Below are positions 17,831 through 32,598 of a DNA stretch of 64,000 bases, piece after piece. The DNA is from Candidatus Poribacteria bacterium (lineage in GTDB: Bacteria; Poribacteria; WGA-4E; WGA-3G). The notes beneath the pieces were generated by a model. That model had not been told where the DNA came from. It saw only the letters and a list, made by a program, of their open reading frames with translations, and did not search any database. The translations under genes and the position numbers were made by a program. Within the stretch, counting starts at the first letter, position 1. Every line of letters starts with the position of its first letter. Location of the stretch: the NCBI GenBank assembly GCA_022821725.1, contig JAJEDB010000078.1, positions 1-64,000 on the forward strand. The letters are read 5' to 3'.

Positions 17831-17871
17831 TACCCTCAGATAACTTGCATTGTGGCAGCAATCACGTAATA

Positions 17872-17948
17872 GATTGTCTGAATCGCGGATTTTCGCGGAT
17901 TACGCAGATTAACGCGGATTACGCTCCAGCGGAGCGGTATGTCTATAG
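17872..17948 (+). repeat. GAATCGCGGATT repeat, copy 2
   Basis: Starts ATTGTCTGAATCGCGG, then CGCGGATTACGC units, and ends in CTCCAGCGGAGCGGTATG plus TCTATAG. It marks the left edge of the helicase-to-TPR gene block. Confidence 0.75.
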
Positions 17949-17970
17949 AAAACAGGGACCTCAACCTCTT

Positions 17971-17993
17971 GCACTCCAGCGGAGTGCTATGTC
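17971..17993 (+). repeat. CACTCCAGCGGAGTG hairpin repeat
   Basis: CACTCC and GGAGTG pair around AGC, followed by CTATGTCT. Relatives occur at 6663, 25139, 25189, 50342 and 50393, always with TATGTCTA or a similar tail. Confidence 0.65.
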
Positions 17994-18032
17994 TTACGCA
18001 AATCGTATTTCTTACTCTTGCCCGGATTAACT

Positions 18033-21000
18033 ATGTCAAATCTTAAATCCAGCATCCGAGACAATCATAAGAGGGGAAGCGTTGGCGACTTCCTGAAGTC
18101 GAAAATAGAAGAAGGTTCCTCTCTCTCAATTGTCTCCGCCTACTTCACGATCCACGCCTTTCAAGCACTCAAAGAATCGCTCACAGGAATCAAAGAGCTC
18201 CGGTTTCTGTATGGTGAACCTCGCTTTATAAAAAGCCTCAACTCCGAAAATGCCGACAAGAAAGCCTTCAAAATTGAGGGTGAAGCCGAAGGCTTGAAAT
18301 TCGAGGATCGGTTAAAACAGAATTGGATTGCCAAAGAGTGCGCCGCATGGATTCGAGAAAAAGTGGAAATCCGATCCATTCAAAAATCTAATCTGATGCA
18401 TGCGAAAATGTATCACATCGCTAAGAATGGTGTAGAAGAGGCCATTGTCGGAAGTTCTAATTTCACTGTGCGCGGTCTCGGCATGAGTGCGACAGACAAT
18501 AACATTGAACTGAATCTTGAAGTAGACAGCAACCGAGACCGCAGTGATGTGAAGTCGTGGTTTGATGATATCTGGGAGGACAAAGAACTCGTCGAGGATG
18601 TCAAAGACGAGGTGCTGTTATATCTTGAGCAACTCTATCAGAACAACACCCCGGAATTTATCTACTATAAAACGTTGTATCACATCTTTGAACGATTTTT
18701 AGGCGAACAGGAAAAGAGTGGACTGCTCGCTGAGGATGTGCAACTCGTTGATACGGTTATCTGGAATACTCTATTCGAGTTTCAGAAGGACGCGGTAAAG
18801 GGAGCGATAAACAAAATCCGGCAACACAACGGATGTATCATTGCGGATAGTGTCGGTTTAGGCAAAACCTTTGAGGCACTGGCGATAATCAAATACTTTG
18901 AACTCCTGAATAACAGAGTCCTCGTGCTATGTCCCAAGAAATTGCGAGACAACTGGACGGTTTATCGCGCAGAGAATAACAGCGAACTGAATCTGTTCCT
19001 CAAAGATCGGTTCGCATACACAGTCCTCTCCCATACCGATCTGAGTCGTGATGGTGGAAAGTCAGGCGATATTAACCTCGAAACCATCAATTGGAGCAAC
19101 TACGATTTGGTGGTCATTGATGAATCACATAATTTCCGAAACAATACGCCGGGTAAGAAAGATGAGGACGGCAATTTGATCCGCAAGAGTCGTTACCAAC
19201 GGCTAATGGAGGATATTATCCAGAGCGGCATCAAAACCAAAGTCCTGTTGCTCTCTGCTACACCAGTGAACAATAATCTGAAGGATCTCCGTAATCAAAT
19301 TTATTTCCTCACCGAAGGTCAAGACGACGCTTTCCTAAAATCGCTCGGCATTGATAGCCTACAAAGGACCCTTGCAGATGCACAACGCACTTTTACCGAC
19401 TGGTCAAAACAGCAGAACAACCGCCAAACACGAGACTTATTGGAACGCCTCAGCTCCGCCTTTTTCAAACTCCTTGATGAATTGACCATTGCCCGTTCCC
19501 GAAAACACATTGAGCAGTACTATCCAGACTCACTTAAAGAACTCGGTGGATTCCCAGAACGCAACAAGCCGATTTCCGTCTATATCAAGGACATTGACCT
19601 GCAAGGGCGGTTCATGTCTTACGACGAACTCAACGAAGAAATCTCCGAATATCAACTCTCCCTGTTCAACCCTTCAAAATATGTGCTGCCCGAATACGTC
19701 TCCCAATATGAGGAGGGGCGGGTTGGTCAATTTACACAAAGTGATCGTGAACACTATCTGATCGGGATGATGAAGGTGAACTTTCTCAAACGCTTGGAAA
19801 GTTCCGTTCACGCCTTTGGGATTACATTGGAACGGACGATTGAGAAAATTGACCGATTAAAAAAACGGATTAAACGGTTTCAAGAATTCCGCGCCGAAAA
19901 TCCTGATATGGACATAGAAGAGGTCGATATTGAAGCACTTGAGGATGAAGATCTGCAAGAGGCGATGCAAGTCGGTAAAAAGTTAATCTTCAAAATGGCA
20001 CACCTTGATACTGAAAGGTGGTTGAAGGATTTGGAACATGACCGCGAGCAACTGGAGCTGCCGCACCTCTATGCTAAGGATGTTACCGATGATCGCGATG
20101 CCAAACTCGCCAAACTCAAACAACTCATCGCTGAAAAGGTTAAACGACCTACAAAAAATAAAGAAGGGAAACCGAATCGAAAAGTTCTGGTATTCACCGC
20201 TTTTGCGGATACAGCCAAATACCTCTACGATGGCTTGGAACAATGGGCAACTGAAGAACTCGGTATCCACATCGGAATGGTATCGGGAGGGACAAGCGGT
20301 AATAAGACCACCTTCGGCAGGACTGAATTCAGCAATATCTTAACGAATTTTTCGCCGAAATCCAAAAAACGGCACCTGATGAAAACTACCATGCCCCAGG
20401 ATGCGGAGATAGACCTGCTCATCGGCACGGATTGTATATCGGAAGGGCAAAACCTGCAGGACTGTGATTACCTCATTAACTACGACATTCACTGGAACCC
20501 AGTCCGTATCATCCAACGGTTTGGACGGATTGACCGCATCGGTAACAACAATGACAGCGTCCAGCTCGTCAACTTCTGGCCCACACCCGACCTCAACCGC
20601 TATATCAAGCTGAAAAATCGGGTTGAAGCACGAATGGCACTCGTAGATATCGCCGCAACGCAGGGAGATAATCTGTTAGAACCCGAAGGAATTCAGGAAC
20701 TCCTTGAGGATGACCTCAAATACCGCGATCAGCAGCTCCTGAAACTAAAAGACGAAGTCTTAGACTTGGAAGATTTCAATGAGAGCGTCGCCCTCAATGA
20801 ATTCACGCTTGACGATTTCCGTATCGACTTGATGAACTATATTGAGAGCAATCGGAAAACGCTTGAGGACGCGCCTTTCGGACTCTATGCCGTTGTTCCA
20901 CCGGATCCGAAGTATCAGATGATTACCAAAGGGGTTATCTTCTGTCTCCGACAAAAAGGCGACTCCACGGGCAATGAAAAAATAAATCCGTTGCAGCCCT

Positions 21001-21332
21001 ATTTCCTCGTCTACATCCGCGAGGATGGCGAGGTGCGGTTTACTTTTACACAACCTAAACAGATCCTTGAGATGTACCGTCTGTTGTGTGCAGATGTGAA
21101 AAAGCCGTATGACGACCTATGCACTTTGTTTGACCAGCAGACTGCCAACGGCACGGATATGACCCAGTATAACGACCTGCTTCAGAGAGCAGTTAAGTCT
21201 CTCAGCCGCACCTATCAGAAACGAGCCGTCGGTAACCTTATATCCGGTCGTGGAGGGAAACTGGTTAAACAACAGAAGCAGATCCGCAATATAACCGATT
21301 TTGAACTCATTACATGGTTGGTGATTCAATGA
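18033..21332 (+). CDS. PLD-domain SNF2-type helicase (defence-like)
   Basis: This 1099-residue protein has an N-terminal phospholipase D-like domain (about 1-190; H123 and K125 in M-H-A-K-M-Y-H, then G-S-S-N-F-T) and an SNF2/HepA helicase core: Walker A G-L-G-K-T (275-279), D-E-S-H (363-366), LLLSATPVNN, F-T-A-F-A-D-T near 730, and Q-R-F-G-R-I-D-R-I-G (828-837). ATG 18033 is chosen over a TTG five codons upstream. The stop overlaps the methyltransferase ATG by four bases, so the two are co-translated. PLD-SNF2 proteins coupled to Eco57I-type methylases recall DISARM DrmD/DrmMI and other restriction-like systems, but drmA, drmB and drmC are absent. It likely tracks on or cleaves foreign DNA; that role is inference. 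Confidence 0.85.
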   Translation: MSNLKSSIRDNHKRGSVGDFLKSKIEEGSSLSIVSAYFTIHAFQALKESLTGIKELRFLYGEPRFIKSLNSENADKKAFKIEGEAEGLKFEDRLKQNWIAKECAAWIREKVEIRSIQKSNLMHAKMYHIAKNGVEEAIVGSSNFTVRGLGMSATDNNIELNLEVDSNRDRSDVKSWFDDIWEDKELVEDVKDEVLLYLEQLYQNNTPEFIYYKTLYHIFERFLGEQEKSGLLAEDVQLVDTVIWNTLFEFQKDAVKGAINKIRQHNGCIIADSVGLGKTFEALAIIKYFELLNNRVLVLCPKKLRDNWTVYRAENNSELNLFLKDRFAYTVLSHTDLSRDGGKSGDINLETINWSNYDLVVIDESHNFRNNTPGKKDEDGNLIRKSRYQRLMEDIIQSGIKTKVLLLSATPVNNNLKDLRNQIYFLTEGQDDAFLKSLGIDSLQRTLADAQRTFTDWSKQQNNRQTRDLLERLSSAFFKLLDELTIARSRKHIEQYYPDSLKELGGFPERNKPISVYIKDIDLQGRFMSYDELNEEISEYQLSLFNPSKYVLPEYVSQYEEGRVGQFTQSDREHYLIGMMKVNFLKRLESSVHAFGITLERTIEKIDRLKKRIKRFQEFRAENPDMDIEEVDIEALEDEDLQEAMQVGKKLIFKMAHLDTERWLKDLEHDREQLELPHLYAKDVTDDRDAKLAKLKQLIAEKVKRPTKNKEGKPNRKVLVFTAFADTAKYLYDGLEQWATEELGIHIGMVSGGTSGNKTTFGRTEFSNILTNFSPKSKKRHLMKTTMPQDAEIDLLIGTDCISEGQNLQDCDYLINYDIHWNPVRIIQRFGRIDRIGNNNDSVQLVNFWPTPDLNRYIKLKNRVEARMALVDIAATQGDNLLEPEGIQELLEDDLKYRDQQLLKLKDEVLDLEDFNESVALNEFTLDDFRIDLMNYIESNRKTLEDAPFGLYAVVPPDPKYQMITKGVIFCLRQKGDSTGNEKINPLQPYFLVYIREDGEVRFTFTQPKQILEMYRLLCADVKKPYDDLCTLFDQQTANGTDMTQYNDLLQRAVKSLSRTYQKRAVGNLISGRGGKLVKQQKQIRNITDFELITWLVIQ

Positions 21333-24300
21333 ACGAACGACGGGAAAGAAAAAATATTGAGCAAGCACTGAAAGGTTTCCAAGACGGCGCGCTGGTAATA
21401 AATGCCCAAAACTTACTGAATACGCTCGGCTACGAGAGCGAACTAACGGTAGATTTTGAATCCAGTCTCGCCGAGGACTTTATTTCATACTTTGACCAGT
21501 TTGGAAAGCTGAACAGCGAACGGGCAATGGTAGACGAATGGGAGTCAATTGATTTTCTGTTCCAGCTGACGGAAGAAGAAATCTCCGGAACAGGTGAAAC
21601 GCGAATCGTTTTTAAAAACCGTCAGTTTGACGACACCATTATGGAGTCCTATGTTTTCTTCGCTGTGAAACTAAAGGAGAGTCATTATACACGCACGCAG
21701 TTGTCAACCATTACTCGCGAAATTAACAAGCCGATGCCGATGCCGGCGATGATAATCTTCCAGCACGGTGAGACTGTGAGTCTTGCTGTCATTGACCGCC
21801 GTCTACACAAGCAAGATAGAGCGAAAGACGTTCTTGAAAAGGTGACGCTGATTAAAGATATCGATTCCCACGATCCGCACCCCGCTCATATTCAAATTCT
21901 GTTTGACCTGTCGCGCAATGAGTTATTTAGAGTTCACGGCTTCAGCAACTTTGTTGAACTGCATCGTGCCTGGGCAAAAACACTTGATATCCAGGAGCTG
22001 AACAAACGATTCTATCGTGAACTCTCCAATTGGTACTTTTGGGCAATGGACAGTGTGACATTCCCAGAGGATGCAGGCGAAGATATAGAGGTCCGCAACG
22101 CCACCAGTGTAATCCGTCTGATTACGCGGTTAATATTCGTCTGGTTCATCAAGGAAAAGAAATTAGTCCCTGACATCTTCTTCAATCCGAGAAAGATAGA
22201 GAAAATCCTTATTAGCACCGATCCACAGAAAAGCACCTACTACAAAGCTATCCTCCAAAACCTTTTCTTCGCGACCCTCAATCAGGAGATGAACACCCCT
22301 GAGAAACCCGATAACCGTAAATTTCGCGGTAAGGGACGGCAGCACTACAATATCACGTCACTCTATCGCTATGAAGCGTATTTTGCGAATCCGAACGAGA
22401 CTCTCAAACAGTTTGAGAAGATCCCTTTCTTGAATGGTGGACTGTTCGAGTGTCTGGATAAAGAGGACAAGGACCAGCCGAAAAAGATTCTACGGATTGA
22501 CGGCTTTTCCGATCGTGAGGATAATCAGTTATCGGTTCCCAATTTCCTGTTCTTTTCCGAGGAAAAGGATGTTGACCTCAACAGCGTCTACGATACAAAA
22601 GGCAGGCGATATAAGGTCCGTGGACTCATTGACATCCTCCGCCGCTACAAGTTCACGGTTACTGAGAATACACCCATTGAAGAGGAAGTCGCACTTGACC
22701 CAGAGTTGCTCGGAAAGGTTTTTGAAAACCTGCTCGCGGCATACAACCCCGAAACAGGTGCGACCGCTCGGAAGCAGACCGGCTCCTTCTACACACCGCG
22801 CGAAATCGTCAACTACATGGTTGATGAATCTCTCATTGCCTACGTCCAAAATTCCCTCTTCTGTAGGAGCGAGCTCCAGCTCGCGACTCTTGAAACTGAC
22901 ACAACCGAAACCAAACTCCGCCACCTCCTCGCCTACAACGACGAACCCCATCAATTCACCGATGCCGAAACCCAGCAGCTCATCAACGCCATTGACACCC
23001 TCAAAATCCTGGACCCTGCCTGTGGATCGGGAGCGTTCCCGATGGGCATCCTCCATAAACTCGTTTTCATTCTCGGAAAACTTGACCCGCGCAACGACCA
23101 GTGGCGGCAACGGCAGATTGATAGGGTCGAAACGCTCATTGAGAGGGCAGATGAAATTGAAGACAGCACGGTTCGGCGAAACACTGTCCGCGACCTTGAA
23201 CGGGAAATTGACAACATCAACGAAGCATTTACACGGAATGAACTCGACTACGGCAGGAAGCTCTACCTCATAGAGAACTGTATCTACGGTGTGGACATCC
23301 AACCGATTGCCGTCCAGATCGCCAAACTCCGCTTCTTCATTTCGCTCGTCGTAGACCAAAGAATTGACGATACCCAAGAGAACAGAGGCGTGCGTCCATT
23401 GCCCAATTTAGAAACCAAGTTTGTCGCAGGAAACACACTCATCGGTGTGGAGAAACCGACCCAGTTGTTAATGCGGAACCCGGAAATTGACCGTAAGGAA
23501 AGGGAATTGGGCGGGGTCCGAAGGAAGCATTTCACCGCCCGCACCCCAAAAACCAAAGAGAAATACCGCAGCCTTGATAAACAGATCCGTGCCGACATCA
23601 GCCAATTGCTCAAGAGCGACGGTTTCCCCAGCGAAACGACTGAGAAAATCGCCAACTGGGATCCATACAACCAGAATGGAGTTGCCGACTTCTTTGATGC
23701 CGAGTGGATGTTCGGTATCACGGAGGGGTTCGATGTGGTAATTGGCAATCCGCCTTACGTTCGTCAAGAGAAGATTAAAGCACTCAAACCCGCTTTCAAA
23801 AAACACTACGCCTGTTACACCGGGGCCGCAGACCTCTACGTCTATTTCTATGAGCGCGGGCTTCAACTGCTGAATGAAACAGGTATCCATACGTTTATCT
23901 GTTCCAACAGTTGGCTGGATGTCAATTACGGTGCGCCGCTACAGAAGTATGTATTGGACAACACCACGGGTGCCGTTATCTGTCACAGTGAAGCGGAACG
24001 TGAGTTTGAAAGTGCTGACATCAACACCATCGTGAGTATTCTCCAAAATGGGACTCCCAATACGGATTCTCGTGCTTGTTTTCTCACCTTCAAGACCTAC
24101 ATTGGCGACCCAAATTTAGAAAACCGTCGTGAAAGAACACGCACCTACACCGAATTAGCACAAGCAGGCACCCGCGAGAACAGATATGCGGGAGACAAAT
24201 GGGGCGGGAAGTATCTACGCGCCCCTGACATCTATTGGACGATTTTAGAGAAAGGAAAAGATAAGCTGGTGCGTTTGGGGGACATCGCGGAGGTGAGACG

Positions 24301-25081
24301 AGGCTTCACAACGGGTGCCAATGAGTTCTTCTATCTTGACGCGGAACGGATCCAAGCATGGGACATTGCAGATGAATTTCTGAAGCCTGTCATCAAGAGC
24401 CCGCGAGAATGCAAAAGCATCCGTGTGGATCCGAGTCAGTTGCAGTTCAAGTTATTCATGTGCCATGCCGACAAGGCAGCCTTGACAGGGACTACGGCGT
24501 TGGAATATATTGAATGGGGTGAATCTCAAGGGTATCATCAGAGACCGAGTTGCCGGGGACGCACGCGCTGGTGGGATTTGGGAAAACAACCACCCTTTGA
24601 TTGGCTAATCCTAAGATTCCGGGATAAAAGGAATTGGACTCCGGTTAACGAAACTCAGTCTTTATTAGCTGGTGATGTTGTTTTTACCGCGACTCTTCAT
24701 AACGGAGACACAATCCAATCTGCAAATGCAGTTGCAAATTCCACTTTGGCGGTTCTTGTTTCTGAAATATATGGGAGAGTTAATTTAGGAGACGGATTAC
24801 TCACAACCTATGGACCCGACATTCTGAGTTTTGACTTCATCTCACCTGACTGGATTGATGCCCAGGGTGGTAAGAGTTTAAGCCAAGTCTTTGAACCGAT
24901 GAAGCGGCGACCTGTTTTGTCAATTTTTGATGAAATCCATCAACCCGATCGTCGCGCCCTTGACACAATCATCTTCGATGCCCTTGACCTTACACAAGGT
25001 GAGCGGGACGGTGTGTATGAAGCGGTGGTGAATCTGGTAGAATCTCGGCTGCGGAAGGCGAGGAGTTTGAGGGCGAAGTAA
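21329..25081 (+). CDS. Eco57I-type adenine-specific DNA methyltransferase
   Basis: This 1250-residue protein resembles large type IIG/PglX-like N6-adenine methylases. It has T-G-S-F-Y-T-P-R-E-I-V-N-Y-M near residue 485, SAM motif I D-P-A-C-G-S-G-A-F (562-570), catalytic N-P-P-Y (807-810), and a C-terminal TaqI-like target-recognition region (P-D-I-Y-W-T-I near 970, L-G-D-I-A-E-V-R-R-G near 987). The 480-residue N-terminal part shows no obvious nuclease motif. ATG 21329 overlaps the helicase stop. It would mark host DNA so that the partner helicase spares it. A palindromic dispersed repeat is embedded in frame at 22863-22886. Confidence 0.88.
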   Translation: MNERRERKNIEQALKGFQDGALVINAQNLLNTLGYESELTVDFESSLAEDFISYFDQFGKLNSERAMVDEWESIDFLFQLTEEEISGTGETRIVFKNRQFDDTIMESYVFFAVKLKESHYTRTQLSTITREINKPMPMPAMIIFQHGETVSLAVIDRRLHKQDRAKDVLEKVTLIKDIDSHDPHPAHIQILFDLSRNELFRVHGFSNFVELHRAWAKTLDIQELNKRFYRELSNWYFWAMDSVTFPEDAGEDIEVRNATSVIRLITRLIFVWFIKEKKLVPDIFFNPRKIEKILISTDPQKSTYYKAILQNLFFATLNQEMNTPEKPDNRKFRGKGRQHYNITSLYRYEAYFANPNETLKQFEKIPFLNGGLFECLDKEDKDQPKKILRIDGFSDREDNQLSVPNFLFFSEEKDVDLNSVYDTKGRRYKVRGLIDILRRYKFTVTENTPIEEEVALDPELLGKVFENLLAAYNPETGATARKQTGSFYTPREIVNYMVDESLIAYVQNSLFCRSELQLATLETDTTETKLRHLLAYNDEPHQFTDAETQQLINAIDTLKILDPACGSGAFPMGILHKLVFILGKLDPRNDQWRQRQIDRVETLIERADEIEDSTVRRNTVRDLEREIDNINEAFTRNELDYGRKLYLIENCIYGVDIQPIAVQIAKLRFFISLVVDQRIDDTQENRGVRPLPNLETKFVAGNTLIGVEKPTQLLMRNPEIDRKERELGGVRRKHFTARTPKTKEKYRSLDKQIRADISQLLKSDGFPSETTEKIANWDPYNQNGVADFFDAEWMFGITEGFDVVIGNPPYVRQEKIKALKPAFKKHYACYTGAADLYVYFYERGLQLLNETGIHTFICSNSWLDVNYGAPLQKYVLDNTTGAVICHSEAEREFESADINTIVSILQNGTPNTDSRACFLTFKTYIGDPNLENRRERTRTYTELAQAGTRENRYAGDKWGGKYLRAPDIYWTILEKGKDKLVRLGDIAEVRRGFTTGANEFFYLDAERIQAWDIADEFLKPVIKSPRECKSIRVDPSQLQFKLFMCHADKAALTGTTALEYIEWGESQGYHQRPSCRGRTRWWDLGKQPPFDWLILRFRDKRNWTPVNETQSLLAGDVVFTATLHNGDTIQSANAVANSTLAVLVSEIYGRVNLGDGLLTTYGPDILSFDFISPDWIDAQGGKSLSQVFEPMKRRPVLSIFDEIHQPDRRALDTIIFDALDLTQGERDGVYEAVVNLVESRLRKARSLRAK
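22863..22886 (+). repeat. Palindromic repeat inside methyltransferase gene
   Basis: GCGAGCT-CC-AGCTCGC (22869-22884), preceded by TGTAGGA, is translated in frame as F-C-R-S-E-L-Q-L-A-T. Its hairpin form resembles the intergenic repeats of this genome, and it lies between motif regions, in a variable linker. Confidence 0.6.
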
Positions 25082-25165
25082 ATTGTCTGAATCGCGGATT
25101 ATCACGGATTACACAAATTACACAGATTTCGCGGATTACGCTCCAGCGGAGCGGTATGTCTATAG
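25081..25165 (+). repeat. GAATCGCGGATT repeat, copy 3
   Basis: Same layout as 17872-17948, ending in CTCCAGCGGAGCGGTATG and TCTATAG. It begins at the last base of the methyltransferase gene and separates it from the FRG-TPR genes. Confidence 0.75.
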
Positions 25166-25188
25166 TACGCGGAACGTTTCTAATCTTC

Positions 25189-25211
25189 CGCTCCAGCGGA
25201 GCGGTATGTGC
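25189..25211 (+). repeat. CCGCTCCAGCGGAGCGG hairpin repeat
   Basis: A second CCGCTCC/GGAGCGG hairpin follows within 25 bases of the one ending the preceding repeat. Confidence 0.6.
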
Positions 25212-25246
25212 GGTATGAAATAGATCGGGTATCAACTGAAATTCGG

Positions 25247-25276
25247 TTGAAATCTGTTCATTTTGCATGTTATCCT
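25247..25276 (+). promoter_or_regulatory. Possible promoter of FRG/TPR cassette
   Basis: TTGAAA (25247-25252), 18-base spacer, TATCCT (25271-25276), 27 bases upstream of ATG 25303. Only moderate match to consensus. Confidence 0.35.
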
Positions 25277-25302
25277 TAAACAATCCGAATTGTGGAAGAG
25301 AA

Positions 25303-26781
25303 ATGAGCATACAAAAAACCGAACTAAACAGAATTTTAGAGATAATCGGCAAGATAGCGAAAATATCTGCCGATGGCAATTATATATACCGCGGAGAACC
25401 GGAATGCTATCCGAAGGTCTCCTCAAACCTCTACCGTGAACTTGAAAAGATTAGACTGTTATACTCTGATGCGATTATGGCTGGTATAGAAGCTGCTCAA
25501 AAAGAAGAACTGAAGAATGCGAAAAAGTACACCAAAGAAACTGGAGAATTTGAAATTCTAACTGAAATCCAGCACTTCGGTGGCAAAACCAATCTGATAG
25601 ATTTTACCACTGACTACCGCATCGCCCTTTTCTTCACCTGTGACCGTTTCCCTTTTGAAGATGGCAGGATTATCTTGCAAGACAAAACCGGGGCGATAAA
25701 AGACTGGATTAGAGAACCTCAGAACCCTGATCCAGAGAGTCGCGTCTGGATACAGAAGAGCATATTTATTATACCGCCCGAGGGTTTCATTGAACCAGAC
25801 ATAGAAATCCTTATTCCACAAGTTCTCAAACAGCCACTGTTAAGGTACCTTGAAAAAGAATTCGATATCTCCAGCGAAAAAATCTATCCCGACCTTCACG
25901 GTTTTGTTAGTAACCAGGATATGCGCTTCAGTGCTTACATGGACTTTTTTAAAGGTTTTGCGTATCTAAAGGGTGGGATTAAAACAAAGAATCCTGAGGA
26001 AGGAGACGAAAACTTTCAAAAGGCGGTTAATCATTTTACCGAGACAATAAAATTAATGCCGGAATTTACCGATGTCTATCGTGTTCGTGGCTTTGCTTAT
26101 TTCCACGAAGGCGAGGTTGAAAAAGCTATCACAGACTATAATAAGGCAATAGAGTTCAAACCCGATGATGCCCAAGCCTATTGCAATCGTGGCAACGTTT
26201 ACTTCCATAAGGGCGAGGTTGAAAAAGCTATCACAGACTATAACAAGGCAATAGAGTTCAAACCCGATGATGCCCAAGCCTATTGCAATCGTGGCTTGGT
26301 TTATTTTCACAAAGGCGAGGTTGAAAAAGCTATCACAGACTATAACAAGGCAATAGAGTTCAAACCCGATGATGCCCAAGCCTATAACAATCGCGGCAAC
26401 GTTTACTACCGTAAAGGTGAGATTGACCTTGCCATCAAAGACTATAACACAGCCATAAAACTGAATCCCAATGGCGCAAACACTTATAACAATCGCGGCA
26501 ATGTTTACAAAAATAAACGCGAGTTTGACCTTGCCATCAAAGACTATAACACAGCCATAAAACTCAAATCCGATTATGATGTGGCCTACAATAATCGTGG
26601 GGAGACGTGGTTATGTATAGGTGAATGGGAGAAAGCAAAAGCAGACCTGACGACTGCTAAGAAAATGGGCATTGATATTGTCACCATGTTTCATAGCACT
26701 AACAGAAGTGTTGCAGCCTTTGAGCAAAAACACGGTGTCCAGTTGCCACCAGATATCACAGCCCTATTAACGCCTCCATAA
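25303..26781 (+). CDS. FRG-domain protein with TPR tail
   Basis: This 492-residue protein joins an N-terminal FRG domain (Y-R-G at 29-31; Q-H-F-G-G-K-T-N-L-I-D-F-T at 90-102; I-A-L-F-F-T-C) to about six TPR repeats (about 235-440) and a C-terminal module ending S-V-A-A-F-E-Q-K-H-G-V-Q-L-P and ALLTP. FRG domains are named for the F/Y-R-G motif; their activity is not known to me, and they are frequent near defence genes. ATG 25303 is chosen for GGAAGAG at 25293-25299; an ATG at 25267 is possible. Three TPR units are near-identical at DNA level. TPRs usually bind protein partners. Confidence 0.85.
   Translation: MSIQKTELNRILEIIGKIAKISADGNYIYRGEPECYPKVSSNLYRELEKIRLLYSDAIMAGIEAAQKEELKNAKKYTKETGEFEILTEIQHFGGKTNLIDFTTDYRIALFFTCDRFPFEDGRIILQDKTGAIKDWIREPQNPDPESRVWIQKSIFIIPPEGFIEPDIEILIPQVLKQPLLRYLEKEFDISSEKIYPDLHGFVSNQDMRFSAYMDFFKGFAYLKGGIKTKNPEEGDENFQKAVNHFTETIKLMPEFTDVYRVRGFAYFHEGEVEKAITDYNKAIEFKPDDAQAYCNRGNVYFHKGEVEKAITDYNKAIEFKPDDAQAYCNRGLVYFHKGEVEKAITDYNKAIEFKPDDAQAYNNRGNVYYRKGEIDLAIKDYNTAIKLNPNGANTYNNRGNVYKNKREFDLAIKDYNTAIKLKSDYDVAYNNRGETWLCIGEWEKAKADLTTAKKMGIDIVTMFHSTNRSVAAFEQKHGVQLPPDITALLTPP
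26110..26415 (+). repeat. Three near-identical 102-bp tandem repeats in FRG-TPR gene
   Basis: Units at 26110-26211, 26212-26313 and 26314-26415 each encode one 34-residue TPR starting G-E-V-E-K-A-I-T-D-Y-N-K-A-I. The first 85 or so bases of each are almost identical, which points to recent unit duplication and possible copy-number variation. Confidence 0.85.
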
Positions 26782-26789
26782 GTTTAAAT

Positions 26790-27563
26790 ATGAATTCACC
26801 AATTGAGATTACTGATTTAGAAGACTACATCGGTTACATACGCAATATTGCAACAGCAGAGAAAAGTCATCTCTATCGGGGGCAAGAAGATGCCGAATGG
26901 CAAGTGACGAGCAGTGCGTTCCGACGCTTGGAAGAAAAATATAGGGCATCTCCCCATTCGTTTTCTTATGTGTATTTGGACTATCTTTCAAAAATTATCT
27001 ATGAGGTCAAACTCAATTATCCCTCTACATACAGAAACCTGTTTCCGTTGGAATGTCTGGCGCATTTACAACATAACGGTGTTGCTACCGGTCTCATCGA
27101 TTTCACCTTCAATCCGCTTATCGCTCTTTGGTTTGCCTGTGGATATCAAAAGGAAGGAATAGATGGTAAAGTGATTGTTCTGGAAAATGATCGGGACATA
27201 ATTGAACAGATAGAAACGCCAGAGAAACTTGAACGCGGCTTAGAGACATTTTTCCCTGTTAATAATGCCGAATGGCACCTTTGGTCACCTGCATTGGACA
27301 GCCAATTCGTTGACACGCAACGTATGACTCGGCAACATTCGGTGTTTCTGTTCGGCTTGCCCGAAGTGGGAGACGAGATGATTGCCAGCGAAATTGTAAT
27401 TCCTTATGTCCACAAAAGACAATTAAGGGTAGAATTAGCAAAAGTTGGCATCTCGGAACAAACCCTATTTGCCGATCTGCTCGGCTTTTTTGACAGAAAC
27501 ACACCCCAGCACGTTTATGATTCTCTTTTAAGTGAACCTAACACTGAGGGAAATCTACCATGA
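26790..27563 (+). CDS. Stand-alone FRG-domain protein
   Basis: This 257-residue protein is mostly one FRG domain: L-Y-R-G at 28-31, L-Q-H-N-G-V-A-T-G-L-I-D-F-T (93-106), I-A-L-W-F-A-C-G, and a later R-M-T-R-Q-H-S-V-F-L-F-G segment near 178. It starts eight bases after the FRG-TPR gene, without a clear Shine-Dalgarno sequence, and its stop overlaps the start of the next TPR gene (ATGA). FRG plus a separate TPR protein therefore mirrors, as two genes, the fused protein upstream. Confidence 0.82.
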   Translation: MNSPIEITDLEDYIGYIRNIATAEKSHLYRGQEDAEWQVTSSAFRRLEEKYRASPHSFSYVYLDYLSKIIYEVKLNYPSTYRNLFPLECLAHLQHNGVATGLIDFTFNPLIALWFACGYQKEGIDGKVIVLENDRDIIEQIETPEKLERGLETFFPVNNAEWHLWSPALDSQFVDTQRMTRQHSVFLFGLPEVGDEMIASEIVIPYVHKRQLRVELAKVGISEQTLFADLLGFFDRNTPQHVYDSLLSEPNTEGNLP

Positions 27564-28918
27564 AAGACCGTTTACTAAGAGGTGAGGAAAATCTCTACCT
27601 TGACTATATGATGCGCGGCAGCGTTAGATTGGCAAAAGGGTTCTACGATCCAGCAATTCACGACTTCAACGAGGCTCTTAAACTGAAGCCTGATCTTTTG
27701 GATGCTTATCATATTCGAGGGGTCGCTTATCGAAAGAAAGGCGAAGTCGACAAAGCCATTGAGGACTTTGACACGACAATAGACCGCAAGCCTGATTTTG
27801 CCGAAGCCTATTACAATCGTGGGGTCGCTTACGCTCATAAGGCACAGATCGAAAAGGCTATGGCGGACTATAACACCTCAATAGATCTCAAACCCTCGCT
27901 CTCTCTCGCTTATTACCAACGCGGCATCGTTTACCACGATAGAGGCGAAGTAGATAAAGCCATTGAAGACTATAGCACTGCCATTAAACACCGCTATAAT
28001 TTCGTAGAAGCCTATAACAGACGAGGCCTCGCGCATCGTGATAAAGGTGAGTTTAATCAGGCAATTAAAGACTTTAGCAAGGCAATAGAGCACGGTCCTA
28101 AACTGGCTGAGGCATATCACAATCGTGGTGAAACCCATGCTGTTAAAGGCGACTACGACTTTGCTATTGATGACTATAATCAAGCGATAAGCCGCAAATC
28201 TGATTTCGCTGAAGCCTACTACAGCCGGGGGCAGGCTTACTTTAGGCAGAACGATTTTGACACTGCTATTCAAGATTTCCAAGAGGTAATACGTCTGAAA
28301 CCAGAGTTCACTGATCCCTATATGGCCCTCGGCACCGTGTATGAAGTCAGAGGCGAACATTCCGAGGCTCTTGAAAACTACACCAAAGTCATAGAACTGA
28401 AGCCGGGCGATGCCAGTGTCTATACAAACCGTGGTCACGCTTATTGCAGACAGGGGAACCTTGAACTCGCCATTAAAGATTACAACAAAGCCCTTGAATT
28501 GGATCCAAGTCATGGCGGAGCGTATGTAGGACTCGGCAGTGCTTTTAGCGAAAAAGGCGACCTGGAGCGTGCCATTCAATACTACAATAAAGCTATTGAA
28601 TTAGAACCCAATCATCCTGTGGCCTACTACAACCGCGGCAGCACTTACAATAAAAAGGGTGAGGCAGATAAAGCGATTGCCGACTATACTAAAGTCATAG
28701 CATTGCAACCCTTGATTAAGGAGGCACATTACGTTTTAGCGGAAGTTTACATGCAAGTCGAAAATTGGTCAGAAGCCAAATTAAATTTGATGCTTGCCAG
28801 AACCCTCGGCGTGGAGATTACCGGTTTATTTAATAAAAAATACGGAAGCGTTGCAAACTTTGAGCAAGGAACAGGTATCCAGTTGCCGACAGACATCGGC
28901 TCCCTACTAACACCGTAG
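27560..28918 (+). CDS. TPR protein coupled to FRG gene
   Basis: This 452-residue protein consists of about eleven 34-residue TPRs (pattern A-Y-x-N-R-G-x-A-Y-x-x-K-G-E-x-D-K-A-I-x-D-Y) followed by the same C-terminal module as the neighbours: W-S-E-A-K-L-N-L-M-L-A-R, then S-V-A-N-F-E-Q-G-T-G-I-Q-L-P-T-D-I and LLTP. No signal peptide is seen, so it is probably cytoplasmic. Translation is coupled to the FRG gene through the four-base overlap, which suggests the two products act together. Confidence 0.85.
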   Translation: MKDRLLRGEENLYLDYMMRGSVRLAKGFYDPAIHDFNEALKLKPDLLDAYHIRGVAYRKKGEVDKAIEDFDTTIDRKPDFAEAYYNRGVAYAHKAQIEKAMADYNTSIDLKPSLSLAYYQRGIVYHDRGEVDKAIEDYSTAIKHRYNFVEAYNRRGLAHRDKGEFNQAIKDFSKAIEHGPKLAEAYHNRGETHAVKGDYDFAIDDYNQAISRKSDFAEAYYSRGQAYFRQNDFDTAIQDFQEVIRLKPEFTDPYMALGTVYEVRGEHSEALENYTKVIELKPGDASVYTNRGHAYCRQGNLELAIKDYNKALELDPSHGGAYVGLGSAFSEKGDLERAIQYYNKAIELEPNHPVAYYNRGSTYNKKGEADKAIADYTKVIALQPLIKEAHYVLAEVYMQVENWSEAKLNLMLARTLGVEITGLFNKKYGSVANFEQGTGIQLPTDIGSLLTP

Positions 28919-29035
28919 TTAACTCACAAACCGACTATAAACATATCGCTTTGGTGGAGAAGAAGATCGGAAAACCGAATAATAACAGGATGGAGACCAT
29001 TTTGACTACGGCACATGTGCATCTTGGAGAAAAAC

Positions 29036-30280
29036 ATGAGAAAAAAACACAGTCAAAAACCTGCTGAGGTGTATTACAAGCACAGGTTCACTCAAAGGAA
29101 AAAAGCGGATTATGAGCGTGCTATTGTAGACTTTACCAAAGCGATAGAACACAATCCAGAGGATGTTTTTGCCTATACCAATCGCGGCGTAGCCTACTAC
29201 AACAAAGGTAGATTTCACCGAGTTATTGATGACTTTAGCACGGTGATAAATCTCAAACCTGACGATCCATTCGCCTATTTGGGACGCGGGATGGCTTACC
29301 GTAACCTGTTGGTTTTTGAGAAAGCCATCCAAGACTTTAGCACGGCGATAAGCCTCAAACCTGATGCGGCTGCCAATGCCTATACCGAGCGCGGTGTAAC
29401 CTACCACAACAAGGGGGACATAGACAAGGCGATTGAAGACTATAACACTGCGATAGCGGTGGATCCAAAGTTCCCAAAGGCTTATATGGAACGTGGGCAG
29501 GCTTACTCGGATAAAGGCGAGATAGATAAGGCGATTGCGGATTACGACAAAGCCATAGACCTTAATCCAGAGTTTGCTGAGCCTTATACCTGCCGCGGCT
29601 CCATCTACATGGAACAAGGCGAGATAGACAAGGCGATTGAAGATCATAGGAAAGCAATAGAATTGAATCCAGAATTTGCCGAAGCATATCTCAATCGGGG
29701 GCAGACTTACTACGCCAAGAACGCATTGGACAAAGCGATTGCGGATTATGACAAGGCGATACAACTCAATCCAAAACTTGTGGAGGCATACACGCATCGG
29801 GGCAACGCGTATCGTGCCACAGACGAGTTAGACAGCGCAATTGCAAATTATACGAAGGCATTAAAACTCAGACCAAAAGTTGCCGAATCTTATTACACAA
29901 GGGGTGAAGCGTGGTTGCTTGCGAAAGGGTGGGAAGCAGCAAAGATCGACCTGACAGCTGCAGTTCTACAAGACGTAGATGTTGCCGCTGCGTTTCACGA
30001 TACCTATGAGAGCATTGCTGCCTTTGAACAAAAAATAGGAGTTTGTTTGCCAAAAGAGATTATAGCGTTATTGACCCCACGGAGCGGGTCTCCGTTTGAA
30101 ATTGAGAGAGACGCGCGGATAGCCTTAGGGATGAAGTATTACGGAAATGGTGAACTCAGCAGTGGACTTGCCTCGAAACTCGCAGGGGTCCCACGCGAAG
30201 AATTCTGGCGTCTGATGGGGGATTATGGGCTCTCTCCTTTATATGTTGATGAGGAGGAGCTTATCAATAGCGGATTTTAA
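29036..30280 (+). CDS. TPR protein with C-terminal UPF0175-like domain
   Basis: This 414-residue protein has about eight TPRs (residues 15-285), the shared module (W-E-A-A-K-I-D-L-T-A-A then S-I-A-A-F-E-Q-K-I-G-V-C-L-P and ALLTP), and an added tail of about 54 residues (I-A-L-G-M-K-Y-Y, then L-A-S-K-L-A-G-V-P-R-E-E-F-W-R-L-M). That tail resembles UPF0175 proteins, small helix-turn-helix-like partners usually found beside PIN toxins. ATG 29036 is chosen for TTGGAGA at 29023-29029. It follows the TPR gene by 117 bases. The fusion hints at a toxin-antitoxin-like or DNA-binding role; this is inference. Confidence 0.8.
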   Translation: MRKKHSQKPAEVYYKHRFTQRKKADYERAIVDFTKAIEHNPEDVFAYTNRGVAYYNKGRFHRVIDDFSTVINLKPDDPFAYLGRGMAYRNLLVFEKAIQDFSTAISLKPDAAANAYTERGVTYHNKGDIDKAIEDYNTAIAVDPKFPKAYMERGQAYSDKGEIDKAIADYDKAIDLNPEFAEPYTCRGSIYMEQGEIDKAIEDHRKAIELNPEFAEAYLNRGQTYYAKNALDKAIADYDKAIQLNPKLVEAYTHRGNAYRATDELDSAIANYTKALKLRPKVAESYYTRGEAWLLAKGWEAAKIDLTAAVLQDVDVAAAFHDTYESIAAFEQKIGVCLPKEIIALLTPRSGSPFEIERDARIALGMKYYGNGELSSGLASKLAGVPREEFWRLMGDYGLSPLYVDEEELINSGF

Positions 30281-30415
30281 GGATGCCAGTACACCCAGTT
30301 GTTAGCAATATCAGAATACTCAAGAACTTGAGGCAATACCAATAAAACATGCGAATCAGTATCTCAAGAATTCCGGACGATGCCCTTGTGATTCGAGGCG
30401 GTAAAAACCAAACAA

Positions 30416-30676
30416 ATGAACAAACCAAAAGTTTTCGCAGACTTCCACAATGCAGATGCAAAAGGAAGGGTGCGGTTGAATTGCGCTGGTACGGAGGCGG
30501 ATATCAAACGTCAAAACATCGTGCTGCAGGATGGGCAACTCCTTATTATCTACAGCGAAGAGTTGGAGGCTGCGGGCGTTGTTCACTACTCCGAAGAAGA
30601 AAGGTTGTGGACAGCCGTGATTGATTGGAGTGCTATTCAAGAAGTAGAACCTGTTATCTCTGATGCCAGAACATAA
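30416..30676 (+). CDS. Small hypothetical protein
   Basis: An 86-residue acidic protein (M-N-K-P-K-V-F-A-D-F-H-N-A-D, then I-V-L-Q-D-G-Q-L-L-I-I-Y-S-E-E-L-E-A-A-G-V-V and W-T-A-V-I-D-W). Its stop overlaps the next gene's start by 14 bases, which supports a real two-gene unit. No family is recognised. No clear ribosome site is seen. A short frame overlapping it (from 30349) may be the remnant of another gene. Confidence 0.55.
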   Translation: MNKPKVFADFHNADAKGRVRLNCAGTEADIKRQNIVLQDGQLLIIYSEELEAAGVVHYSEEERLWTAVIDWSAIQEVEPVISDART

Positions 30677-30968
30677 GATTGAGAACACACAATTTCAGTG
30701 CACCACAATTCTCGATTCTGTCTATGAGGAACCCTACGCCGCACATCTCGAAAAAGAATCTGTCGGATGGCGTGGATGGATTCCGCAGCTTCCTGAAGTC
30801 GAATGCACGGCAGAAACGAAAAAAGAACTTCTGAACGCGCTTGCAATCAGACTCCGTGAAGTACTTCAGGCACGTGAGGACGCTTGGGATAAACAGTTGG
30901 AAGCAGACATAGAAGCGGGAAAATTGGAACATCTACAAGAGGACGCTCGCCGCGCAAAATCCGCGTAA
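30663..30968 (+). CDS. HicB-like small protein
   Basis: This 101-residue protein has a YAAHLEKESVGWRGWIPQLP core followed by a helical K-E-L-L-N-A-L-A-I-R-L-R-E-V segment, resembling the HicB antitoxin fold (partial RNase H-like). No HicA-like toxin (a small double-stranded-RNA-binding protein) is adjacent; the preceding 86-residue gene could be the partner but does not look like HicA. A repeat overlaps its last codons. Confidence 0.5.
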   Translation: MPEHKIENTQFQCTTILDSVYEEPYAAHLEKESVGWRGWIPQLPEVECTAETKKELLNALAIRLREVLQAREDAWDKQLEADIEAGKLEHLQEDARRAKSA

Positions 30969-31005
30969 TCCGTATAATCCGTGAAAATCCGCGATTCAGA
31001 CAACT
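30958..31005 (-). repeat. GAATCGCGGATT repeat, copy 4 (inverted)
   Basis: The minus strand reads TTGTCTGAATCGCGGATTTT. It closes the right edge of the helicase-to-HicB gene block, inverted relative to the copy at its left edge (17872-17948). Confidence 0.75.
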
Positions 31006-31981
31006 ACCCCCGTCCAAACACCAAAACATCATAATCCTGTCCGCTATACGTGAATTGGTCTTTGAACCGACCTTCACAGGTAAAGCCTGCGGCTTCCAAA
31101 ATCTCCGCCTTCCTCTCAGCACCGCTGTCCACATAACACTGAACCTTCACATCAGGAAACATGACCGCCGAAAGCAACGCAGGAACAACGTCTGCGAAAT
31201 TCGGATGAAAGAAGAGATCCAACACAGCAGTCGCCGGTCGCCAGCGTGAATCACGACTGAGAGTTGCCCACCCGACAATCGCACCACCTGAAGAAATTAA
31301 CAATTTCGCATCAGCGTAGGTGTCCTCGGTCTCCAAATCGTGTTTGAAACTGAGAAACCCGCCTTCCAGGTTCGTGGGACCGTAAACCGCCCACTTCAGA
31401 CTTCGGAGTGTGTCCCATCCAACAATACCCGATAACGCCGTGACTTTCGGCCAATCGTGCCATTCCACGGACTTTGGCACCGCAGGTGCAGGCGCGAAGT
31501 AGCGTTCCTCAAAATCTTCATGCACATGATACTTCATAAAACCGGATTCTGGAAATACACTCGCAAATCCGAAACTGTGATAGATATAATACGGATGACT
31601 GTTGTAACCCGTGCCCAAATAGAGAGCCTTGCCTGACCGTTGTCGGAAATCCTCCATCTGATACGCCATCACGCCTTTTGCTGCCCCCTTCCTACGCTGT
31701 TTCGGGAGCGTAAAAACGTGCCCTAAAATACCGACCCCTTCATACTCGACCGTCATGATGTTGGTAATCACAGCGCCGTCAAGTTTACCGACATAGAAAC
31801 GGGTTTCTAAGGCATCAAGCACTTCTGTAACACACCGTTCAATATGCCACTTATAGTTCCCCGGTTTATGTCCAAGGAATTGCTTTATCTCTTCGGCATG
31901 GGGCGTGTCGGGAGCGGTAACCACACCGACCTCCATCCGTTCCCCTGTTTTCAGTAATACGTCTCCGAATTTATTGTACAT
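31004..31981 (-). CDS. GNAT-family acetyltransferase-like protein
   Basis: This 325-residue protein has an N-terminal GNAT domain (about 10-170) with V-E-Y-E-G-V-G-I-L-G-H-V-F-T-L-P and the acetyl-CoA loop K-Q-R-R-K-G-A-A-K-G-V-M, then Y-Y-I-Y-H-S-F-G-F. A second, weaker half (from about 185) may be another acetyltransferase-like domain, so it could be a tandem GNAT. ATG 31981 fits AGAGG five bases upstream; a GTG two codons earlier is possible. The substrate is unknown. Confidence 0.72.
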   Translation of the reverse strand: MYNKFGDVLLKTGERMEVGVVTAPDTPHAEEIKQFLGHKPGNYKWHIERCVTEVLDALETRFYVGKLDGAVITNIMTVEYEGVGILGHVFTLPKQRRKGAAKGVMAYQMEDFRQRSGKALYLGTGYNSHPYYIYHSFGFASVFPESGFMKYHVHEDFEERYFAPAPAVPKSVEWHDWPKVTALSGIVGWDTLRSLKWAVYGPTNLEGGFLSFKHDLETEDTYADAKLLISSGGAIVGWATLSRDSRWRPATAVLDLFFHPNFADVVPALLSAVMFPDVKVQCYVDSGAERKAEILEAAGFTCEGRFKDQFTYSGQDYDVLVFGRG

Positions 31982-32016
31982 AACCACCTCTATGAGAGTA
32001 ATCTCAGGAAATAAAA

Positions 32017-32045
32017 TTGCACTACACTGAAAAATATGGTATACT
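32017..32045 (+). promoter_or_regulatory. Promoter of ndk
   Basis: TTGCAC (32017-32022), a 17-base spacer, TATACT (32040-32045), about 90 bases before the ndk start. Leader contains the repeat at 32080-32113. Confidence 0.6.
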
Positions 32046-32079
32046 TAAAATCGCTTGATGTCAAGCCTGAATACTCACA

Positions 32080-32113
32080 AGCATCGGGGTTAGAAACCCC
32101 TCCCACAAAGAGC
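32080..32113 (-). repeat. GGGAGGGGTTT repeat (inverted copy)
   Basis: TCGGGGTTAGAAACCCCTCC is the reverse complement-type copy of the segment at 2049-2080. GGGGTT and AACCCC form a short stem. Confidence 0.55.
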
Positions 32114-32133
32114 AATGTTAAAATGGAGGGACT

Positions 32134-32598
32134 ATGGAGACAGAACAGACACTGGTTCTCATCAAACCGGACGGTGTTCAACGGGGGCTTATCGGTGAAG
32201 TGATTGCCCGTTATGAACACAAAGGACTCAAAATCGTTGGAATGAAATTGTTGCAGCTCCCGCGCGACACAGCAGAGAAACTCTATGCTGTCCATCAGGG
32301 CAAGTCTTTTTACAATGTACTTATCGAATTCATGACTTCAGCCCCTATTGTTGCCTTAGCGATTGAAGGGCGCGACGCAATAGAATTGGTGCGCATCCTT
32401 AACGGGGAAACCGACCCAAAGAAATCGCAACCTGGAAGTATCCGAGGCGATTTCTCAATCAATATCACGCATAACGTCGTGCACGCATCCGACTCCCCAA
32501 GGAGTGCTGAGCGTGAATTAGATATCGTGTTTGCACCCGATGAACGCTACAAATATCACCGAATAGATGAAGAGATCCTGCATCCTTCGGTATCGTAG
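32134..32598 (+). CDS. ndk: Nucleoside diphosphate kinase
   Basis: NDK (154 residues; usual 140-150) transfers the gamma phosphate of ATP to other nucleoside diphosphates through a phosphohistidine. Seen are TLVLIKPDGVQRGLIGEV at the N terminus, R-G-D-F-S near residue 109, and the active-site N-V-V-H-A-S-D-S-P-R-S-A-E-R-E near 117-131, whose His is the phospho-acceptor. GGAGGGA lies upstream of the ATG. It stands alone with its own promoter. Confidence 0.96.
   Translation: METEQTLVLIKPDGVQRGLIGEVIARYEHKGLKIVGMKLLQLPRDTAEKLYAVHQGKSFYNVLIEFMTSAPIVALAIEGRDAIELVRILNGETDPKKSQPGSIRGDFSINITHNVVHASDSPRSAERELDIVFAPDERYKYHRIDEEILHPSVS

What the first reader, a model, noticed from the sequence alone, without database searches (positions are those of the whole stretch)
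25303..30280. FRG/TPR cassette: fused form, split form and a third TPR gene
An FRG-TPR fusion is followed by a separate FRG gene coupled by ATGA to a TPR gene, then another TPR gene. All three TPR proteins end in the same module (W-x2-A-K-x-D-L..., then S-V-A-x-F-E-Q-x-x-G-x-x-L-P and LLTP). The same two parts occurring both fused and split in tandem strongly implies that FRG and TPR-module work together. Placed next to a methylase-helicase pair, this may be an undescribed defence or stress system.
Basis: partly seen in the sequence, partly recalled or inferred. Interest (0 to 1): 0.8.

Follow-up and report, generated by a model that had tools for sequence, protein, structure and literature searches.

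The report
Swappable-toxin TPR cassette of sponge bacteria
A bacterial symbiont of sponges carries a toxin-like enzyme (FRG) tied to a repeat protein with a distinctive tail, and in related genomes the same repeat-and-tail part is joined to several different toxin-like enzymes, often beside DNA-methylating genes, which suggests a mix-and-match defence family.

Summary
P0001 is an FRG-TPR fusion; P0002/P0003 are the same parts split and ATGA-coupled; P0004 is a third TPR protein. All three TPR proteins carry one C-terminal module (~69 aa) that Pfam matches only over its TPR-like half; in P0004 a UPF0175 tail follows it. In eight near-complete relatives 27 of 40 FRG domains have the module downstream on the same strand (0.16 expected at random). 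The fused/split state changes at least three times on an FRG tree. The module is wider than FRG: of 127 module proteins (loci mostly chosen by the module) 31 are FRG-fused, 18 TIR-fused, 33 carry UPF0175 (24 followed by a PIN gene), 12 carry a methylase-type specificity tail, and 7 precede Fic. 17 of 49 FRG/TIR fusions directly follow a P0005-like methylase; a Latescibacterota locus runs helicase-methylase-TIR-TPR-module with 4-base overlaps. FRG models as an ADP-ribosyltransferase fold. Best reading: the TPR-module restrains interchangeable toxin domains and releases them on infection, often as a second line beside a methylase system. Activity, trigger and phage protection are untested.

The parts
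18033..21332 (+). P0006: PLD + SNF2 helicase (ORF listed from TTG 18018; ATG at 18033)
   Evidence: Pfam PLDc_2, SNF2-rel_dom, Helicase_C; PADLOC C3a139 'HKD+Snf2' 424.7 bits over residues 37-1103
21329..25081 (+). P0005: Eco57I-type adenine methylase, ATGA-coupled to P0006 if it starts at 21329 (ORF listed from 21314)
   Evidence: Pfam Eco57I 133.9 bits; PADLOC REase_MTase_IIG 247.8 bits; junction sequence
25303..26781 (+). P0001: FRG-TPR-module fusion
   Evidence: model pLDDT 89.0, pTM 0.64
25378..25644 (+). FRG domain of P0001
   Evidence: PF08867, residues 26-114
26572..26778 (+). C-terminal module of P0001
   Evidence: A1 profile, E 3.6e-40
26790..27563 (+). P0002: separate FRG protein, ART-like fold in model
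   Evidence: PF08867 59.3 bits; model pLDDT 85.8, pTM 0.84; fold comparison
27560..28918 (+). P0003: TPR-module protein, start overlaps the stop of P0002 (ATGA)
   Evidence: 11 TPRs
28715..28915 (+). C-terminal module of P0003
   Evidence: E 3.0e-37
29015..30280 (+). P0004: TPR-module-UPF0175 protein; the PIN partner usual in relatives is not found here
29876..30082 (+). module of P0004 (internal, not terminal)
   Evidence: E 2.7e-38
30089..30262 (+). UPF0175 antitoxin-like tail of P0004
   Evidence: PF03683 48.3 bits, cut-off 27.9, residues 359-416
17865..17998 (.). dispersed repeat copy upstream of the helicase gene
   Evidence: the repeat finder D2/D3; 42 exact copies of its 19-mer core in the genome
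25074..25215 (.). second repeat copy, between methylase and FRG cassette
30953..31003 (.). inverted partial copy of the same repeat, beyond the cassette
   Evidence: inverted repeats I1/I2

Best explanation
The cassette is a set of toxin/effector units governed by one shared regulatory part. The TPR array plus its C-terminal module ('TPR-module') binds and holds in check a catalytic toxin domain, either fused in cis (P0001) or encoded next door and translationally coupled (P0002/P0003). On infection, probably by phage, or on loss of its partner system, the TPR part changes state and the FRG enzyme, an ADP-ribosyltransferase-fold protein, consumes NAD+ or ADP-ribosylates a target and stops the cell. 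P0004 belongs to the branch that pairs with PIN toxins through UPF0175, here without its PIN gene. The upstream PLD-SNF2 helicase and Eco57I-type methylase form a restriction/modification-like first line, and the FRG units are its abortive second line. Shown: domain make-up, coupling, recurrence, toxin-domain swapping, methylase linkage. Inferred: inhibition by the TPR-module, NAD+ use, the trigger, defence.
For: Of 23 separate FRG genes in the fetched loci (some duplicates) 20 are directly followed by a module gene on the same strand, 13 of them overlapping by 4-62 bases. FRG has the module downstream in 27 of 40 cases in eight near-complete genomes (random 0.16); P0005-like methylases have it in 9 of 25 loci (random 0.157). 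Swapping among 127 module proteins: FRG 31, TIR 18, UPF0175 33 (24 followed by a PIN/DUF3368 gene), 7 bare forms followed by Fic, methylase-type specificity tail 12 (11 followed by an ATPase gene); 113 of 127 are joined or adjacent to such a partner. Second phylum: of 15 stretches fetched (14 with a module ORF) 9 have FRG or TIR fused or adjacent, one of them helicase-methylase-TIR-TPR-module with 4-base overlaps. FRG model: all 50 listed PDB rows are ADP-ribosyltransferase-fold proteins, best Z 7.8. Frg is called an ART-superfamily member and possible NADase in PMC9503650 (passages read).
Against: No activity, toxicity or protection is shown. FRG has invariant R30, T100, Q182 and K209, but I saw no residue-level alignment to a classical catalytic glutamate, so NAD+ use is not assured. 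Best fold Z is 7.8, under the tool's caution line of 8, and no Foldseek match reached E 0.001. 32 of 49 FRG/TIR fusions (one of them at a contig edge) do not directly follow a P0005-like methylase, and 16 of 25 P0005-like loci have no module within 8 kb downstream. 13 of 40 FRG domains and 23 of 34 TIR domains lack the module downstream. Loci in the 127-protein census were mostly gathered by the module. P0004 lacks its PIN partner.
Confidence: 0.58

Rival explanations
1. Plain toxin-antitoxin modules: the TPR-module protein is a promiscuous antitoxin (as Panacea is) that neutralises FRG, PIN or Fic and serves stability of the genomic region, with no infection sensing and no functional tie to the methylase.
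For: Order and overlap are typical of toxin-antitoxin pairs; UPF0175 is a putative antitoxin of PIN/DUF3368 toxins (PMC6929052, passages) and 24 of 33 module-UPF0175 genes precede such a PIN gene; 7 of 39 bare module genes precede Fic genes.
Against: Long and variable TPR arrays (2 to 34 repeats) are larger than an antitoxin needs; cis-fused FRG and TIR forms; repeated methylase linkage.
Confidence: 0.25
2. Eukaryote-like TPR proteins that act on the sponge host.
For: Poribacteria are sponge symbionts, and TPR proteins of sponge symbionts are discussed as host-interaction factors (recalled; search listings only).
Against: The module is joined to FRG, TIR, UPF0175 and a methylase-type specificity domain and lies beside methylase, PIN, Fic and ATPase genes, a make-up that points to intracellular conflict. 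Secretion signals were not tested.
Confidence: 0.07
3. The TPR-module units are scaffold or specificity subunits of the methylase system itself, with FRG/TIR as accessories.
For: 12 module proteins carry a tail homologous to the C-terminus of neighbouring methylases; 17 of 49 fusions directly follow a P0005-like methylase.
Against: In none of the 5 loci holding both is the local methylase the closest match to that tail (ranks 2, 3, 5, 18, 22); most units stand without a P0005-like methylase.
Confidence: 0.1

Closest known systems
FRG domain family (PF08867; PADLOC PDC-S15)
   Same: P0001 and P0002 belong to it by score; PDC-S15 is called an uncharacterised phage defence candidate in PMC12482510 (passages)
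   Different: Here FRG is under a TPR array with a conserved C-terminal module. The 'FRG domain' search listed 8 papers; I read passages of one of them
Effector-associated domains (EADs) of NTP-dependent conflict systems (PMC7159879, passages)
   Same: A small helical non-enzymatic domain on many different effectors, in tandem genes and many copies per genome
   Different: No core NTPase component is shared by these loci as far as seen; copies in one locus are not clearly more alike (0.517 v 0.498, p 0.087), which is described for EADs
Panacea hyperpromiscuous antitoxin (PMC10440598, passages)
   Same: One regulatory domain paired with several unrelated toxin families
   Different: A different domain (TPR-like hairpin plus short helices), also fused in cis to TIR or FRG and to a methylase-type specificity tail; neutralisation untested
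UPF0175 (COG2886)-PIN/DUF3368 toxin-antitoxin pair (PMC6929052, passages)
   Same: P0004 and 32 other module proteins carry a UPF0175-like tail; a PIN/DUF3368 gene follows in 24 of these 33
   Different: The antitoxin tail sits on a TPR-module protein, and P0004 lacks the PIN gene
DISARM, BREX and type IIG methylase systems
   Same: P0005 and P0006 match DrmD, PglX and type IIG profiles in part
   Different: Curated cut-offs for DrmD and PglX are not reached

Membership tests
FRG (PF08867) | score above the Pfam cut-off (25 bits) | tested here: met
   P0001 44.3, P0002 59.3 bits
ADP-ribosyltransferase (ART) superfamily | ART fold | tested here: met
   model pLDDT 85.8; all 50 listed rows are ART-fold proteins, best Z 7.8, rmsd 3.0 over 110 residues. 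Moderate score: Foldseek best E 0.012
ADP-ribosyltransferase (ART) superfamily | catalytic triad with the classical glutamate | tested here: inconclusive
   R30 and Q182 in 51 of 51 rows, S184 in 47 of 51; no residue-level alignment to an ART was seen
ADP-ribosyltransferase (ART) superfamily | uses NAD+ | not testable with these tools
   needs an assay
Effector-associated domain (EAD) | copies in one operon closer to each other than to others | tested here: not met
   39 same-locus pairs 0.517 v 5739 other pairs 0.498, permutation p 0.087
Hyperpromiscuous antitoxin (works like Panacea) | same domain paired with unrelated toxin families | tested here: met
   FRG, TIR, PIN and Fic partners
Hyperpromiscuous antitoxin (works like Panacea) | neutralises the toxins | not testable with these tools
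   needs co-expression
UPF0175-PIN toxin-antitoxin | UPF0175 domain | tested here: met
   P0004 48.3 bits, cut-off 27.9
UPF0175-PIN toxin-antitoxin | PIN toxin gene adjacent | tested here: not met
   no PIN found in 29901-32500 by tblastn with four relatives; present after 24 of 33 related genes
DISARM | DrmD curated cut-off (610 bits) | tested here: not met
   P0006 157.6 bits
BREX | PglX curated cut-off (500 bits, BREX-1) | tested here: not met
   P0005 69.5 bits
Type IIG-like methylase | Eco57I methylase domain | tested here: met
   133.9 bits, cut-off 25.3; nuclease activity not tested

The most novel reading that the evidence does not exclude
The TPR-module is a new immune chassis: one sensor/inhibitor part that has captured at least four unrelated killing domains (FRG, TIR, PIN, Fic) and, in some forms, a methylase-type DNA specificity domain plus an ATPase partner, so that a cell could turn recognition of unprotected DNA, or failure of its methylase system, directly into NAD+ loss instead of DNA cutting.
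Probability: 0.3. Interest if true: 0.88.

Novelty: new variant of a known kind. Interest (0 to 1): 0.72.

Why it matters
It would give a searchable regulatory module that predicts new toxin and defence genes in uncultured sponge symbionts, offer FRG (so far a defence candidate of unknown activity) a natural partner to study it with, and allow a clean test of whether NAD+-consuming effectors act as a second line behind methylase systems. The split pair P0002/P0003 is small enough to test in E. coli at once.

Tried and rejected
Cognate specificity tails: I expected the methylase-type tail on module proteins to resemble the methylase next door most. In the 5 loci with both, the local methylase ranked 2, 3, 5, 18 and 22. 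Rejected.

Same-locus modules more alike, as for EADs: not supported (p 0.087).

Recent duplication of the fused into the split form: rejected (29% FRG identity, deep clades).

Hypervariable TPR arrays: the best adjacent TPR units of P0001 are 93% identical in DNA; 13 of 117 module proteins reach 85% or more against 0 of 13 control TPR proteins. The control set is small; suggestive only.

SUKH-like module: one of 108 module sequences matched SMI1_KNR4 at E 0.0098; too weak to use. The PDB profile search found essentially TPR proteins, over the first half of the module.

Phages: the A1 pattern scan of viral contigs gave 37 stretches, none confirmed. tblastn of P0003 in phage records gave 14 records, all under 60% identity; in the 5 rows seen identity was 24.5-31.3%, which I take to be generic TPR matches. 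FRG alone is found on 221 plasmid records; 12 rows were seen and their neighbourhoods were not examined.

Papers: searches listed no paper that by title or abstract start describes FRG with TPR or this module; this covers the held open-licence library only, and I read passages of five papers. One search (six terms) returned nothing.
Full report
What is there. The window lies in a 4.97 Mb genome of 151 contigs. Of the 30 named records that carry the module in the genome collection, most are Candidatus Poribacteria; two are Latescibacterota/Latescibacteria and one Dehalococcoidia. From 18033 to 30280 the large genes lie on the + strand: P0006 (PLD-SNF2 helicase), P0005 (Eco57I-type methylase), P0001 (FRG-TPR-module), P0002 (FRG), P0003 (TPR-module) and P0004 (TPR-module-UPF0175). 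P0006/P0005 overlap by ATGA if P0005 starts at 21329, and P0002/P0003 overlap by ATGA.

The module. The C-terminal 69 residues share 20 invariant columns in the three window proteins. A 108-sequence alignment keeps Y6, R9, W19, A22, D25, L26, A29, F40, F50, E51, P59 and L66 in 90% or more. Pfam matches its first half as TPR in about half of the members and nothing consistent beyond; solved structures match essentially as TPR over the first half. In the P0001 model (pLDDT 89.0, pTM 0.64) it is a TPR-like helix pair followed by three short helices, all well predicted. The module occurs in 66 of 117 genomes searched from the own genome outwards, 7 of 54 genera, in 12 of 64 genomes of the phylum of the Latescibacterota match and in 1 of 197 genomes drawn from the class of the Dehalococcoidia match. 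The own genome has 11 full copies among 26 matches at E up to 1.

Is FRG tied to it? I used 8 genomes chosen for having few contigs (all 8 were known to hold the module; FRG had not been looked at): 40 FRG domains, 61 module hits, 34 TIR domains. A module lies within 5.5 kb downstream on the same strand for 27 of 40 FRG and 11 of 34 TIR domains; random placement of FRG gives 0.16 on average and at most 2 in 500 trials. 31 of 61 modules have FRG upstream, 12 TIR, 41 either, 20 neither. In the fetched loci, of 23 separate FRG genes listed (some loci are duplicates), 20 are followed at once by a module gene; the other 3 carry TPRs in the same protein but no module. On a tree of 55 FRG domains (34 fused, 18 separate, 3 without module left out of the count) the fused/separate state needs 5 changes, and well-supported branches force at least 3. 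P0001 and P0002 sit in two deep clades split with full support.

What else the module is joined to. In 91 long loci, mostly gathered because they hold the module, 127 different module proteins were found. By profiles made here: FRG-fused 31, TIR-fused 18, UPF0175 tail 33, methylase-type specificity tail 12 (8 of these also FRG, TIR or HNH), HNH 1, DUF2971 1, none of these 39. In the 10 examples scanned, Pfam gives TIR, DUF2971, TaqI_C and a weak HNH_5 match (20.0 bits, under its 27.5 cut-off), and DUF3368 or PIN, Fic and SMC-like ATPase in neighbouring genes. 24 of 33 UPF0175 forms are followed by a PIN/DUF3368 gene, 11 of 12 specificity-tail forms by an ATPase gene, 19 of 39 bare forms are preceded by an FRG gene and 7 of 39 are followed by a Fic gene; 113 of 127 are joined or adjacent to one of these. 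P0004 belongs to the UPF0175 branch, but no PIN gene is found beside it.

Methylase linkage. 17 of 49 FRG- or TIR-fused proteins directly follow a P0005-like methylase (10 of 31 FRG, 7 of 18 TIR; 1 of 49 is at a contig edge). In the 8 near-complete genomes 9 of 25 P0005-like loci have a module within 8 kb downstream, against 0.157 at random. Of 25 other upstream same-strand neighbours I scanned 10: two TIR, two HSDR_N, one AAA_21/DUF4435, one transposase-like, two FGE-sulfatase, one thiamine enzyme, one without match. So the tie is frequent, not obligatory.

Second phylum. Of 15 fetched stretches one (L168) gave no module ORF. Of the 14 others 9 have FRG or TIR fused or adjacent: L163, L165, L167, L174 and L176 TIR; L164, L166, L173 and L177 FRG; the other 5 are bare. 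L163 runs helicase-methylase-TIR-TPR-module with overlaps of 4 bases. L173 and L177 follow a type ISP and an N6/N4 methylase; L169 follows a protein with three AAA matches. One further listed match of that phylum was not refetched because it lies in L083, which has a separate FRG gene.

FRG. The P0002 model (pLDDT 85.8, pTM 0.84) has its best matches among ADP-ribosyltransferase-fold proteins: best Foldseek E 0.012 with none under 0.001, best Z 7.8, all 50 listed rows of that fold. Invariant residues include R30, G31, T100, I103, F105, G126, R178, Q182, K209 and D229. The passages read call Frg an ART-superfamily member that might be a NADase (PMC9503650). The step 'consumes NAD+' is therefore inference.

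Mechanism. The simplest account of fused, split and swapped forms is that the TPR-module part controls a catalytic toxin domain. Inhibition until a trigger is the usual logic of such pairs (established for toxin-antitoxin systems; here inferred). The trigger could be phage proteins sensed by the TPR array or loss of the neighbouring methylase system; nothing here decides between them. The lack of cognate specificity tails speaks against a strict one-to-one tie to the neighbouring methylase.

Verdict. It works like a promiscuous antitoxin or an effector-associated domain, but it is not shown to be either.

Noticed in passing
17865-17998, 25074-25215, 30953-31003: Copies of one dispersed repeat sit before the helicase gene, between methylase and FRG cassette, and (inverted, partial) beyond the cassette; its 19-mer core has 42 exact copies in the genome, so cassette shuffling by recombination is possible but unproven.
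   Followed up: partly
26015-26524: The TPR units of P0001 repeat every 102 bases; the best adjacent pair is 93% identical in DNA, a sign of recent unit duplication.
   Followed up: partly
30416-30676 and 30663-30968: Two small overlapping ORFs after P0004 without a Pfam match above cut-off; the second looks HicB-like to the eye (recalled, untested).
   Followed up: no
L064:11239-12663, L144:10941-12386, L087:6552-7994: SMC/RecF-like ATPase genes directly follow module proteins with a methylase-type specificity tail (11 of 12): a possible separate two-gene system.
   Followed up: partly
L169:5910-8798: A protein with three AAA ATPase matches is followed by a short TPR-module gene in Latescibacterota.
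   Followed up: no
L112:1-19901: One locus holds methylase, FRG-module, TIR-module-specificity tail, ATPase and two UPF0175/PIN module units in a row, the densest array seen.
   Followed up: no
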